Shown here: one piece after another, positions 6,971 through 13,640 of the stretch | Position numbering within the stretch: the stretch's first letter is position 1 | Layout: every line of letters starts with the position of its first letter | Assembly: GCA_016931955.1 (NCBI GenBank) | Contig: JAFGDV010000033.1 | Span: 1 to 13,640, forward strand | Length of the DNA: 13,640 nucleotides | Direction: 5' to 3' | Origin: Candidatus Altarchaeota archaeon | Lineage (GTDB): Archaea > Altiarchaeota > Altiarchaeia > IMC4 > QMZM01 | The notes under the pieces: model-generated | What the model saw: only the letters and a program-made list of their open reading frames with translations | Databases searched by the model: none | Told to the model about the DNA's origin: nothing | Made by a program: the position numbers and the translations under genes

Positions 6971-6997
6971 CTTGGATTTATTTATTAGGTTTGTACC

Positions 6998-7004
6998 ATA
7001 TATA
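6998..7004. promoter_or_regulatory. Symmetric TATA box serving divergent genes
   Basis: ATATATA (flanked by ACC and CG) reads as a TATA box on both strands. On the minus strand, 26 nt further is about 6975, six bases before the ATG at 6970. On the plus strand it points to about 7027, nine bases before the ATG at 7036. The spacing fits both genes, so one box may serve both directions, but this is inferred from spacing only. Confidence 0.4.
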
Positions 7005-7035
7005 CGTATTCGTCGTAAAATAATCACTCAGAGAA

Positions 7036-7860
7036 ATGAAAACTCCCGACCTAAAACCCAGGAAGATGAGTCTCAGCATAGAATATGTTAACAAATTGCT
7101 TGGAATGGATTACAGCGGAGAGGAAGTTAAGAAACTGCTGGAGAAGATGCGCTACGGCGTAGAGGTCAGTGGAGAGAAAATCAAGGTGTTGATCCCAGCA
7201 TATAGAACAGACGTACTGCACCCGATGGACTTGGTGGAAGACATAGCAATAGCTCATGGATACGGGAACTTTAAGCCGGAGCTGCCGAAGACCAGTACCA
7301 TAGGAGAAAGAGACCCGGCGGAGCTATTCTATAACTCCATAAGAGAACTGATGCTAGGCTTCGGCTTCCAGGAAACAATGACGCTAATAATGACGAACAA
7401 AAAAAATCTGTTCGAGAAAATGGAGACTCCAGAAGAAAAAACAGTGGAGACAAAGAATCCAGTCTCAGTAGAGCACTCAATAGCGAGAACATGGCTCCTA
7501 CCATCACTCCTAACAGTACTGGAGAAAAACAAGAATAGGGAATACCCGCAAAGGATCTTTGAAATAGGATACTGCATCACAGGAGAAGGAAGAGACAAGG
7601 TAAAGATGGCAGCAGTAATAGCGCACTCTAAGGCGAACTTCTCAGAGACGAAGGCCATCTACACAGGCATAATGGATAATATCGGTATAGAGTGCAAGAC
7701 AACGGAATACAAACACGGAAGCTTCATCCCGGGAAGATGCGCCTCCACAGAGGAAGGATTCTTCGGAGAAATACACCCCAAGGTATTGGAAAACTTCGGC
7801 CTCGAAGTGCCAGTAACAGCCTTTGAATTGGATCTGAGCTCTATCTTTGAGAGAATATAG
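7036..7860 (+). CDS. pheT: C-terminal half of phenylalanyl-tRNA synthetase beta subunit (lacks editing domain)
   Basis: 274 aa matching only the second half of archaeal PheT (normally about 550-590 aa). Residues 1-85 are the B5 domain: TPDLKPRKM (3-11), YVNKLLGM (17-24), and the conserved VLIPAYRTDVLHPMDLVED (51-69). Residues 90-274 are the catalytic-like core (B6/B7): FGFQETMTLIMT (109-120), NPVSVEHSIARTWLLPSLL (141-159), FEIG (175-178), GEIHPKVLENFG (244-255), ending in the family's FELDLSSIF. The N-terminal B1 and B3/B4 (editing) part, about 270 residues, is absent, and upstream plus-strand frames do not encode it. The frame is open, with stops just before 7024. Homology begins at residue 2-3, so the break is at about 7020-7042. 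aRF1 follows after 14 bp with no terminator, so the two are probably co-transcribed. It may be a split gene, a truncated pseudogene or a rearrangement/assembly junction. Confidence 0.85.
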   Translation: MKTPDLKPRKMSLSIEYVNKLLGMDYSGEEVKKLLEKMRYGVEVSGEKIKVLIPAYRTDVLHPMDLVEDIAIAHGYGNFKPELPKTSTIGERDPAELFYNSIRELMLGFGFQETMTLIMTNKKNLFEKMETPEEKTVETKNPVSVEHSIARTWLLPSLLTVLEKNKNREYPQRIFEIGYCITGEGRDKVKMAAVIAHSKANFSETKAIYTGIMDNIGIECKTTEYKHGSFIPGRCASTEEGFFGEIHPKVLENFGLEVPVTAFELDLSSIFERI

Positions 7861-7874
7861 CAACTGATTCTAGA

Positions 7875-8963
7875 ATGGACGCCAAAAAAGAGTACAGACT
7901 AAGGAAGATAGTGAACGAATTGAAGAACAAGAGAGGAAGACACACAGAACTGGTCTCAGTGTACGTGCCCAAGGGCTTCGACATAAACAACGTCATAGGA
8001 CAACTCGCAGAAGAACAGGGGACTGCCTCGAATATAAAGTCGAAGACTACTAGGAAGAACGTGGTAGACGCCTTAGAGAAGATAATACAACATTTGAGAT
8101 TATTCAAGCAGACCCCGGAGAACGGATTAGCGGTATTCTGCGGAAACATCTCAGAAAGAGAGGGAATACAGGACCTGCAACTGTGGTCCGTGGAGCCGCA
8201 CGAGCCGATATATGTGAGAATATACAGGTGCGATCAAACCTTCGTCACAGAGCCCCTCGAAGACCTGGTGACTACAAAGGAGGTATATGGGTTGATAGCG
8301 ATCGACAACAAGGAGGCGACGATAGCCACTTTGAAGGGAGATAGATACAACATAATAAAGAAGCTGACCTCAGGATACAGGGGAAAACACAGAGCCGGAG
8401 GACAATCACAGAGGAGATTCGAACGAATAGTCTTAGAGCAGTCACATGAGTTCAAGGTAAGGGTGGGAGAAGCAGCCACAACAGCATTCCTAGACAACCT
8501 GAAAGACCTGAAGGGAGTCGTCGTAGGAGGCCCAGCAGGCACAAAAGACGACTTCCTGGAAGGAGACTACCTACACCACGAACTCAAGAAGAAGATCATC
8601 GCAGTACAGGACATAACATACACCGACGAATCAGGGATAAGAGAGCTGATAGACAAGTCCAAGGATGTTCTAAGCAACGTAGAAATGGTGAGACAGAAGA
8701 TCCACGTGCAGCGGTTCCTGAAAGAACTGATACACGACGGAAACATAGCCTACGGAGACGACATAGAAAAAGCACTCAACGCAGGAGCCGTGGAGGTGTT
8801 GTTGCTCTCCCAAAATCTGAACGACGAAGCCATAGACGACCTGTACGAGAAGGCGAAGGCGACAAGCGCCAACGTCGAAATACTCTCAGACAACTTCGAG
8901 GAAGGATTCCAGCTCTGGAACACATTCAAGGGAAAGGCAGCATTGCTGAGATTCAAGGTATAG
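7875..8963 (+). CDS. prf1: Archaeal peptide chain release factor aRF1
   Basis: 362 aa class-1 release factor that reads all three stop codons in the ribosomal A site and triggers peptide release. Domain 1 carries TASNIKS (50-56) and YRCDQTF (117-123; the YxCxxxF stop-recognition motif). Domain 2 carries GGQ (175-177) within HRAGGQSQRRFER. Domain 3 (about 245-362) is shorter than in most archaea (typical total about 410 aa). After VEVLLLSQNLND (307-318) the sequence passes directly to ANVEILSDNFEEG, without the CxxC-bearing mini-domain. The GTS/GTE motif reads HTE (23-25), preceded by GR. The ATG at 7875 fits the normal N-terminus; no Shine-Dalgarno is apparent, so coupling to the upstream pheT fragment is likely. 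It ends in TAG followed by T9. A partial copy of its 3' end lies downstream. Confidence 0.95.
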   Translation: MDAKKEYRLRKIVNELKNKRGRHTELVSVYVPKGFDINNVIGQLAEEQGTASNIKSKTTRKNVVDALEKIIQHLRLFKQTPENGLAVFCGNISEREGIQDLQLWSVEPHEPIYVRIYRCDQTFVTEPLEDLVTTKEVYGLIAIDNKEATIATLKGDRYNIIKKLTSGYRGKHRAGGQSQRRFERIVLEQSHEFKVRVGEAATTAFLDNLKDLKGVVVGGPAGTKDDFLEGDYLHHELKKKIIAVQDITYTDESGIRELIDKSKDVLSNVEMVRQKIHVQRFLKELIHDGNIAYGDDIEKALNAGAVEVLLLSQNLNDEAIDDLYEKAKATSANVEILSDNFEEGFQLWNTFKGKAALLRFKV

Positions 8964-10672: not shown

Positions 10673-13090
10673 ATGGACACTAAACACATGATGTGGATAG
10701 CAGTGGTCTTTGTTCTGATACTATCACATCATGCCTCTGCAGGATACTGCAATGAAGAGCTAATGGATGCTGAAGCCGGAGCCCACGTCGTCGTATCCAA
10801 ATGCAGGAACATCGGAACGTTCTCCCTCGGAGGCTTCTATGACGGAGAATGGGAGAGATTAACGTATAACTACCCGGAGGCGTGGGAGGGCACCTTCATG
10901 AGTGTGTACGTGGATGGAAGGGTCTATTCTAATACTATGAATCCCTCCAGTGTAAGGCTCGACAGCAGCACATTCATGGACCAATACGTGGAGAAGGCTC
11001 CGCAGAGGATAGGCAACAAGATCATCACGGTGTGGAGGCTCCCCGAGCAGGTCATCGTTGAAGAGATACTCGAATTGGTCGAGAACGGCACCAAGATACA
11101 TATCAGATTGGGAAACAAAGGGGGGCGGGATGTTGAGGTTGGGGCGAGGCTCCACTTAGACACGATGCTCGGGGAAAACGACGGCGCACCGATCTACATA
11201 CCAGGCGACGGATTGAAGTCGAAGGAATCAGAGTACTACGACGACGGACTCGACTTCAGATACTGGAAAGCATATAACAGGGGAGAGAATGCGACGATAA
11301 TCTCCAGCGGAATACTCTATGGTGAAGGATTAACGTACCCCGACAGGCTGCTGGTCACGGACTGGAAGAAGAGCATGTACTCGTCATGGGACTATGGAAT
11401 TGATCCAGGGGTCACTATACTGGGGGATTCAGCAGTGATCATATACTATGAACCGAGGACCCTTTCGCTGAATGAGACGAGGACGATCCTCACAGCATAC
11501 AAGAGAGGCGAGCCCGTGCTGGGGGTTGCGAAAGGCAGCCTTGGAATAGCGGACATAGTACCAGAAGGCGTTGATGATGAGCATCTTCCAGGAGAAAACA
11601 TCTCCTTCAGCGTTGATGTTGTGAGCAGGGACGTTGAAGAAAATACCAGCGTGCTTGTAGAGGTCGTCGACAAAGAAGGTAAGATAGTCTACAAATACAA
11701 CTCGACAAGCGATATCCTGGAGCCGGATACAGTAACGCCGACAGGTTTTGGCTTCCAGGTTCCTGAGGACTCAATGGAAGGAGACTTCTTTGACGTAAGG
11801 GCGTCTCTGTTCAAGGACGGGGAGAGGGTCGATCAACAGAGTAAGAGGTTCACTGTTTCAGAATCACAGAAGGGCTCATTCATGTTGGACGACGTCAGGG
11901 TTACTGGTTCCGGTAATGTCTCAGACATAGAGGTGGACTTGATAAACCTCGGATCGAGAAATAGCGGGGTCTTGAGGATTCAAGTAATAAAGGACGGAGT
12001 GGTCATCTATGAAGCAACAAGGTCGACTGATATCTTGAATGCGGACACTGTAGGGACCTACAACTTCGAATGGTTCCATGAAGGCATCGACTTGGATTCC
12101 TTCATCGTTGTCGTATCCCTCTACAGGGATTACAGGAAGGTGGATGAGATAAAGAAGGAATTCTCTTTCCGGTTCAGGTTGAAGGACGTGCGGCTTTACA
12201 AGACAGGAGAGAAACAGGTCATCATCGAAATAGATCTGGTAAGCTCCAAGGCGCCGAACAGCGGCGAAGTAGGGCTTGAGGTACTGAGCAACGGGGAAGT
12301 CATCCATGAAAGTATGAAGGCGACTGGTATCGTTCCACCCTTTATGACGACCACCGTCAACTTTACCTGGATCCCAGAGGGTGATTATTATAATCCAATT
12401 TTTGTAGCCATTTCCTTGTACAAGGATCTCAAGAAAGTAGATGAGATCACGAAGGAGTTATCCTTTAAAACAGATGATGGCGGATCTCCTGAATCGGTCG
12501 AACTGCCCGAGGCTTCAGAAGTCATGGTAGAAGAGGAGGATGAAGTAGATGAAGGCGTGCCTTACCTGCAGATTGCCGGGTTAATGTTATTGATATTGCT
12601 GTTTTTGTTTCTCAATCCAGTGACTAGGGGGAAGGTGATGGATACTGGGGGTGGCATCTATGGTGAAATAGAAAGGAGGAGCCAGAGGAAGGGTTCGATG
12701 AAGAAGGTGGTTGAGATTCTAAAGGCGGTAGGCGTTAGCATGGGAGTCAACGATATCCTAAAGGAGATGAGGGATCTTAAGGCGGTTGAATTGGAGAAGC
12801 TGAGGGACGGCGAAAATATTGTGCTGATCATCAAGAACAGAAGCGGTAAGAGGTTGAGGAATTGTGTGGTCGAAGACAGCCTCCCAGGAGGTGGGGGGGT
12901 TTCGATGTCAGACTTCCACACGATAGGCAAGGGTGATAAACTGGTAGTTGGCAGGGACGATAAACTCATCTGGCAGATAGGGACACTGCTGCCTGGGGAC
13001 ACAGCTATCCTGGAATACAAGATGACGGGAGGCAAAACCATGACTCCGGTAAGGCTTAAATGGGATTTCGGGGAGAAAGTCCAAGGTTAG
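10673..13090 (+). CDS. Large secreted, single-pass surface protein with three beta-sandwich repeats
   Basis: 805 aa of no family I can name. A signal peptide (about 1-23, ending ASA-G) leads to an ectodomain. The N-terminal domain (about 35-285) contains NIGTFSLGGFYDG (46-58), LTYNYPEAWEGTF (63-75) and RLHLDTMLGENDGAP (159-173). Three repeats follow at about 327-394, 433-499 and 533-598, each of the form [LV].V...G.V.YE..(S/T)TDIL...T and ending SLYKD..KVDEI.KEFSF, like CARDB/Ig-type modules. Eight N-X-S/T sequons (N138, 206, 267, 309, 324, 343, 415, 563) precede an acidic linker (617-627) and one membrane segment (about 629-650). A basic patch and a roughly 150-residue tail (about 655-805) with a W-Q-I-G-x-L-x-P-G beta motif follow. 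It is divergent from NfeD, and a paralogue begins 38 bp downstream. It is probably a glycosylated surface protein. Length and repeats are seen; function is unknown. Confidence 0.75.
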   Translation: MDTKHMMWIAVVFVLILSHHASAGYCNEELMDAEAGAHVVVSKCRNIGTFSLGGFYDGEWERLTYNYPEAWEGTFMSVYVDGRVYSNTMNPSSVRLDSSTFMDQYVEKAPQRIGNKIITVWRLPEQVIVEEILELVENGTKIHIRLGNKGGRDVEVGARLHLDTMLGENDGAPIYIPGDGLKSKESEYYDDGLDFRYWKAYNRGENATIISSGILYGEGLTYPDRLLVTDWKKSMYSSWDYGIDPGVTILGDSAVIIYYEPRTLSLNETRTILTAYKRGEPVLGVAKGSLGIADIVPEGVDDEHLPGENISFSVDVVSRDVEENTSVLVEVVDKEGKIVYKYNSTSDILEPDTVTPTGFGFQVPEDSMEGDFFDVRASLFKDGERVDQQSKRFTVSESQKGSFMLDDVRVTGSGNVSDIEVDLINLGSRNSGVLRIQVIKDGVVIYEATRSTDILNADTVGTYNFEWFHEGIDLDSFIVVVSLYRDYRKVDEIKKEFSFRFRLKDVRLYKTGEKQVIIEIDLVSSKAPNSGEVGLEVLSNGEVIHESMKATGIVPPFMTTTVNFTWIPEGDYYNPIFVAISLYKDLKKVDEITKELSFKTDDGGSPESVELPEASEVMVEEEDEVDEGVPYLQIAGLMLLILLFLFLNPVTRGKVMDTGGGIYGEIERRSQRKGSMKKVVEILKAVGVSMGVNDILKEMRDLKAVELEKLRDGENIVLIIKNRSGKRLRNCVVEDSLPGGGGVSMSDFHTIGKGDKLVVGRDDKLIWQIGTLLPGDTAILEYKMTGGKTMTPVRLKWDFGEKVQG
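11147..11196 (+). repeat. 50-bp exact direct repeat, copy 1
   Basis: Encodes the RLHLDTMLGENDGAPIY block of the 805-aa protein. Identical at every base to 13591-13640, although flanking homologous DNA has diverged at many silent sites. Confidence 0.9.
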
Positions 13091-13128: not shown

Positions 13129-13640
13129 ATGTTTTCCAAGGAATACGGGATTCTGTTTACTGTGTCTATGTTGTTGCTCCTGAATGGAGTCATAGCTGAG
13201 GAGTGCACGGTGGAGCTCAAGAACCCATCAAAGGGCGTGCACATCGTAGTCGAAAGCTGCGGCAACATAGGGACATTCTCAGTTGGAGGGCTGTATGACA
13301 AGGATAAATGGGAGAAGCTGACCTACAACTACCCGGAGACATGGAAGGGCACCTTCCTGAGCGTGAAGGTCGATGACAGGGTTTATTCCAATTTTGTGGA
13401 ATCACAGGATAAGGTATTCATGGATCCATACGTTGAGCAGCAGCCTACGGTGGAAGGCGAATCGATCCTGACCACATGGAGGCTTCCTGGGGATGTCAGA
13501 TTGGAGGAGAGGTTTGGGCTGATAGATAAAGGGGTTATGTTAAATGTAACGATAATAAACGAGGGAGACGTATGTGTCGATACCGGGATAAGGCTCCACT
13601 TAGACACGATGCTCGGGGAAAACGACGGCGCACCGATCTA
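13129..13640 (+). CDS. Secreted surface protein paralogue, 3' end cut by window
   Basis: An open frame from ATG 13129 that runs off the window after 170 complete codons. It opens with a signal peptide (MFSKEYGILFTVSMLLLLNG, then VIA-EE as likely cleavage). It continues as a clear paralogue of the N-terminal domain of the upstream 805-aa protein. Shared blocks include NIGTFSVGGLYD, LTYNYPETWKGTFLSV, DDRVYSN, TTWRLPGDVRLEE and RLHLDTMLGENDGAPIYI. Overall identity by eye is a little above half, with indels. Two Cys (after the signal peptide, in EECTV, and in VESCGNIG) match the two Cys of the upstream protein and could form a disulfide. The tandem arrangement suggests a duplicated surface-protein family. 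Whether it has the same repeats and membrane anchor lies beyond the window. Confidence 0.85.
   Translation, partial: MFSKEYGILFTVSMLLLLNGVIAEECTVELKNPSKGVHIVVESCGNIGTFSVGGLYDKDKWEKLTYNYPETWKGTFLSVKVDDRVYSNFVESQDKVFMDPYVEQQPTVEGESILTTWRLPGDVRLEERFGLIDKGVMLNVTIINEGDVCVDTGIRLHLDTMLGENDGAPI
13591..13640 (+). repeat. 50-bp exact direct repeat, copy 2 (reaches window end)
   Basis: Same block in the paralogue, identical to 11147-11196 for all 50 bases to the last base of the window. Its true length is unknown because the sequence stops here. Confidence 0.9.

What the first reader, a model, noticed from the sequence alone, without database searches (positions are those of the whole stretch)
7020..7860. 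PheT reduced to its C-terminal half, starting at the B5 domain boundary
The sequence shows an open 274-codon frame covering only B5 and the catalytic-like core of archaeal PheT. It starts with ATG two residues before the family's TPDLKPR segment and has a plausible TATA box upstream. The B1 and B3/B4 (editing) half is missing. Since the cut falls at a domain border and the remaining frame is intact and linked to aRF1, this could be a genuine split synthetase, with a separate editing half encoded elsewhere, or a synthetase that has lost editing. Split genes, including a split AlaRS, are known in Nanoarchaeum equitans. The alternatives are a truncated gene after rearrangement or a chimeric assembly.
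Basis: partly seen in the sequence, partly recalled or inferred. Interest (0 to 1): 0.78.

Follow-up and report, generated by a model that had tools for sequence, protein, structure and literature searches.

The report
Split phenylalanine tRNA synthetase in Altiarchaeota
In this archaeon the beta subunit of the enzyme that loads phenylalanine onto its tRNA is made from two separate genes far apart in the genome; the split is real, ancient and intact, but it was already described in 2016 as a hallmark of this archaeal lineage.

Summary
Window 7036-7860 (+) is an intact 274-codon gene for the B5 and catalytic-like half of archaeal PheT (TIGR00471 positions 271-550), followed directly by aRF1. 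The missing half exists. On another contig of the same genome (C28:13397-14203, -) a stand-alone 268-codon gene encodes B1 and B3/B4 (positions 1-265) with its editing residues. No full-length copy was found.

The split is not an assembly artefact. All 22 genomes of the phylum in which both halves were found carry them at separate places. In a single-contig genome they lie 355 kb apart, and in another they lie 450 kb apart on one contig. Purifying selection acts on both halves, so the protein is most likely a three-chain PheRS (alpha, beta-N, beta-C). "Lost editing" and "truncated or chimeric" are rejected.

It is not new. Bird et al. 2016 (PMC4975002) reported pheT split just before B5 as a synapomorphy of Altiarchaeales, and the window's relatives are named Altiarchaeales records. 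I add a 29-genome survey, the genomic distances, and one exception. Family f6 has a full-length pheT and branches below all split lineages, so the fission probably followed f6's divergence. The companion dph2 split is shared with f6 and is therefore older.

The parts
7036..7860 (+). pheT C-terminal half gene (B5 domain + catalytic-like module of PheRS beta), 274 aa
   Evidence: PF03484 82 bits, PF17759 138 bits, TIGR00471 positions 271-550; AlphaFold model mean pLDDT 92.4, best PDB matches all PheRS beta
7021..7023 (+). in-frame TAA stop upstream of the start codon; excludes a longer PheT frame
6997..7005 (+). TATA-like sequence (CATATATAC) about 35 nt upstream of the ATG; possible promoter of an almost leaderless transcript
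   Evidence: by eye; no clear equivalent in relatives, so weak
7875..8963 (+). aRF1 (prf1), directly downstream; the linkage C-half - aRF1 recurs in families f1, f4, f5 and f7

Best explanation
The window carries the C-terminal half of a pheT gene that underwent one clean fission at the linker between the B3/B4 editing module and B5 in an ancestor of most Altiarchaeota. The two halves are now independent, non-adjacent genes. Each is translated on its own, and the inferred product is a heterohexamer (alpha, beta-N, beta-C)2 with PheS. Beta-C (B5 and catalytic-like module) forms the core four-helix-bundle interface with alpha. Beta-N (B1, B3/B4) docks non-covalently on the core and keeps hydrolysing Tyr-tRNA(Phe). 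Shown here: both halves exist, are intact, are under purifying selection, and are separate in all relatives where both were found. Inferred: assembly, charging and editing.
For: C-half is the only copy in the genome. The N-half is a separate ORF on C28, TIGR00471 1-265 at 315 bits; together the halves cover the family with a gap of about 5 positions. C-half frames of 272-355 aa and N-half frames of 264-319 aa recur through the phylum. Halves are 355 kb apart on opposite strands in the single-contig G015, and 450 kb apart in G018. dN/dS is about 0.14-0.24 for both halves (ratios computed). Editing site: Asn217 of P. horikoshii (PMC3275996) corresponds to N213, invariant; S211, D234 and T236, which I recall from Sasaki 2006, correspond to S207, D229 (D or E in the clade) and T231. 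PheS was found above cut-off in 25 of 29 genomes, at another place in the genome. Split sequences form one clade, 99/98. Published precedent in the same lineage. An engineered split PheT (at a different linker, B1/B3) is viable in Mycoplasma pneumoniae (PMC12494982).
Against: No expression, complex or activity data exist here. The window's own reads could not be inspected. The window's genome is a 46-contig draft, 92% complete, so a full-length copy in a missing part is not strictly excluded, although none appears in any of the other split genomes. The function of each half alone is untested.
Confidence: 0.91

Rival explanations
1. The B1/B3/B4 half acts as a free-standing trans-editing protein, like AlaX or other free-standing editing domains, and is only loosely or never part of PheRS, while PheS plus beta-C does the charging.
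For: The halves are at unlinked loci. The B3/B4 editing residues are kept. A protein with this domain set plus B5 folds on its own: the P. horikoshii structure 2cxi covers residues 1-348.
Against: B1 and the whole architecture up to the exact cut are retained. [quoted passage not shown] No genome at high completeness was found with the C-half alone.
Confidence: 0.07
2. Pseudogene, truncation after rearrangement, or chimeric assembly.
For: The window's genome is a draft in 46 contigs.
Against: The same cut occurs in every split genome of the phylum, in single-contig and long contigs, with intact frames and low dN/dS. Bird et al. checked read support and three assemblers in their genomes.
Confidence: 0.01
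3. Synthetase that has lost editing, with a shortened PheT as the only beta chain.
For: Only the C-half is present in the window.
Against: The N-half is in the same genome with conserved editing residues.
Confidence: 0.01
4. One chain is restored by split inteins or mRNA trans-splicing.
For: None found.
Against: The halves end and begin within a few residues of the conserved PheT sequence. No intein domain in either. Each half has its own start and stop codon.
Confidence: 0.01

Closest known systems
Split pheT of Altiarchaeales (Bird et al. 2016, Front Microbiol 7:1221, PMC4975002)
   Same: Same gene, same cut just before B5, two non-adjacent loci, same lineage; [quoted passage not shown]
   Different: They had 7 genomes, could not place the halves relative to each other, and reported the split as defining the order. 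Here 29 genomes are surveyed, distances are measured, and one family (f6) with unsplit pheT is found at the base.
Full-length archaeal/eukaryotic PheRS beta (TIGR00471; structures 2cxi, 3l4g)
   Same: All domains present in order when the halves are joined; conserved editing residues; partner PheS.
   Different: Two polypeptides instead of one.
Other split synthetases: LeuRS of Aquifex aeolicus, AlaRS of Nanoarchaeota (as cited in PMC4975002)
   Same: An aminoacyl-tRNA synthetase chain encoded by two genes.
   Different: Different enzyme and cut site; independent events.
Engineered split PheT of Mycoplasma pneumoniae (PMC12494982)
   Same: Experimental proof that a PheT works as two fragments in vivo.
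   Different: Bacterial PheT, cut in the B1-B3 linker, artificial.

Membership tests
Archaeal PheRS beta (TIGR00471 pheT_arch) | Sequence match over the whole model | tested here: met
   N-half 1-265 at 315 bits (cut-off 282.65); C-half 271-550 at 281.4 bits, just below the full-length cut-off as a half
Archaeal PheRS beta (TIGR00471 pheT_arch) | B1, B3/4, B5 and catalytic-like domains | tested here: met
   PF18262, PF03483, PF03484 and PF17759, all above cut-off, divided between the two genes
Archaeal PheRS beta (TIGR00471 pheT_arch) | Single polypeptide | tested here: not met
   Two ORFs on different contigs; in-frame stop 4 codons before the C-half start
Archaeal PheRS beta (TIGR00471 pheT_arch) | tRNA(Phe) charging and Tyr-tRNA(Phe) editing with PheS | not testable with these tools
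   Needs purified proteins; PheS is present in the genome
Split pheT of Altiarchaeales (Bird et al. 2016) | Cut just before B5, halves at non-adjacent loci | tested here: met
Split pheT of Altiarchaeales (Bird et al. 2016) | Host belongs to Altiarchaeales/Altiarchaeota | tested here: met
   Contigs of G002, G004, G009, G013 and G027 match by length and match position named Altiarchaeales, Altiarchaeota or Altarchaeum records, including WOR_SM1_SCG, one of the genomes of Bird et al.; the window's genome is in the same family as G002, G004 and G009
Split pheT of Altiarchaeales (Bird et al. 2016) | Single origin of the split | tested here: met
   Split sequences form one clade, 99/98; species markers agree

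The most novel reading that the evidence does not exclude
The free beta-N half is not a fixed PheRS subunit but a dissociable or stand-alone editing factor that proofreads Tyr-tRNA(Phe), and perhaps other tRNAs, in trans. In that case the fission would have turned a cis-editing synthetase into a trans-editing system.
Probability: 0.07. Interest if true: 0.7.

Novelty: already known. Interest (0 to 1): 0.3.

Why it matters
A universally essential synthetase chain has existed as two genes across a whole archaeal phylum, apart from one basal family. That is a clean natural experiment in gene fission and a good rare marker for archaeal phylogeny. The unsplit family f6 gives the missing before-state: it places the pheT fission after f6 diverged and orders it after the dph2 fission. 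It also warns that split pheT does not define every member of the phylum. Fragment-based annotation or marker-gene completeness checks will see two partial pheT genes in these genomes.

Tried and rejected
Read coverage over 7000-7060 could not be checked, because no reads are available; conservation across genomes was used instead. Full-length pheT elsewhere in the genome: none. Independent splits in other archaea: G061's short frame lies at a contig end; G053's shorter frame is a full-length match 1-550 with one in-frame TAG. Re-fusion of pheT in f6: the PheT tree alone cannot exclude f6 nested within the split clade (AU p 0.155 and 0.158), but aRF1+EF-2+PheS reject it (p 0.0009 and 0.0017); replacement of pheT in f6 by horizontal transfer is not excluded. 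The eight extra N-terminal residues of the window genome's N-half ORF are probably not used, because close relatives have stops there and start at MPTVEF.

Full report
Observation. The ORF at 7036-7860 (+) is real: 274 codons, ATG start two residues before TPDLKPR, TAG stop, in-frame TAA at 7021-7023 upstream, aRF1 starting at 7875. Pfam and NCBIfam show B5 and the catalytic-like module only, TIGR00471 positions 271-550. A model built from a 29-sequence alignment has mean pLDDT 92.4 and matches PheRS beta chains first in the PDB. The C-half therefore looks like well-folded domains, though the pTM of 0.67 leaves their relative placement less certain.

The other half. A search of the window's genome (G000, 1.55 Mb, 46 contigs, 92% complete, 0.4% contamination) with B3/4 gave one place, on contig C28. 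There a 276-codon ORF (probably 268, starting at MPSVEF) covers TIGR00471 1-265. The C-half has no second copy. The two genes together make a complete archaeal PheT with a gap of about five model positions at the cut. The N-half aligns to P. horikoshii 2cxi residues 1-266, and the start of the C-half to 274-348 of the same chain, so the cut falls in the linker between B3/B4 and B5.

It is a conserved split. Of 29 genomes of the phylum, 26 carry the N-half and 24 carry the C-half as separate genes (a few of these are cut by contig ends); 22 have both, and in none of these are they adjacent. The six split-lineage genomes in which one half was not found (G003, G008, G011, G014, G020, G021) are 70-81% complete. 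On the single contig of G015 the halves are at 384.9 kb (+) and 740.5 kb (-); on contig C3 of G018 they are at 81.8 and 531.7 kb. This answers a point that the earlier authors had to leave open. Low dN/dS (NG86) in the pairs that were not saturated, 0.14-0.24 for the C-half and 0.14-0.20 for the N-half, shows purifying selection on both (ratios computed).

Function. The N-half keeps the editing pocket. Asn217 of P. horikoshii, named in PMC3275996, is N213 here and invariant. Ser211, Asp234 and Thr236, which I recall from Sasaki et al. 2006, are S207 (invariant), D229 (Asp or Glu in the clade, Glu also in the unsplit relative) and T231 (invariant). PheS of about 490-505 aa is encoded elsewhere. 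The most likely product is (alpha, beta-N, beta-C)2. That is inferred, not shown. A split PheT works in an engineered Mycoplasma pneumoniae, cut at another linker (PMC12494982).

Prior work. Names came from contigs shared with annotated records: the relatives are Altiarchaeales, Altiarchaeota and Altarchaeum. Bird et al. 2016 (PMC4975002) described exactly this: pheT split just before B5, at non-adjacent loci, supported by reads and three assemblers, proposed as a synapomorphy, together with a split dph2-type gene. The finding is therefore already known. My searches turned up no other paper in the library that describes a natural split pheT.

What this adds. One family of the phylum, f6 (single genome G024, 79% complete), has a full-length pheT (535 aa). 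In a PheT tree the split sequences are one clade (99/98) with G024 outside. In a tree of aRF1, EF-2 and PheS (864 columns) G024 is sister to all split lineages (100/99). Nesting it in either split subgroup is rejected (p 0.0009 and 0.0017). PheT alone does not reject nesting. PF01866 (dph2 type) is split at profile position about 60 throughout the phylum, and G024 has the small stand-alone N-piece, though its C-piece was not found. So the dph2 fission is probably older than the pheT fission. This rests on one draft genome for f6, and replacement of its pheT by transfer is not excluded.

Verdict. The split synthetase is real, essentially ordinary for this lineage, and published; the refinements are modest.

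Noticed in passing
L305 (G008:C78:1-1900), 234-320 and 1761-1842: An 82-bp stretch 94% identical to the start of the C-half gene (about codons 1-27) lies 1.5 kb upstream of the intact C-half, with an ATPase_2/DUF234 gene between them. It looks like a mobile gene inserted in the 5' end of the C-half with that end regenerated. Insertion at this spot could hint at how pheT was first broken, but that is speculation.
   Followed up: partly
window 7875-8963 and L170-L199, L284: aRF1 of Altiarchaeota is about 362 aa against 398-417 aa in most other archaea sampled; the difference lies near residue 317 of the window protein, in domain 3. The f6 fragment shares the short form; a few other lineages (G044, G046, G053) look short too.
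   Followed up: partly
L307/L309 (G053:C1:257994-259649): Full-length pheT with a single in-frame TAG in a 99% complete archaeal genome outside the phylum; could be read-through such as pyrrolysine, or an error.
   Followed up: no
G000:C38:41361-41543 and C23:95023-95673 (L141): The diphthamide synthase gene (PF01866) is split in the window's genome as in the rest of the phylum, with a first piece of about 60 profile positions; already reported by Bird et al. 2016.
   Followed up: yes
window 10673-13090 and 13129-13640: Two tandem paralogous secreted-looking proteins (N-termini strongly alike, 'GTFSLGG/GTFSVGG...LTYNYPE...LHLDTMLGENDGAPI'); the first, 805 aa, has no Pfam match.
   Followed up: no
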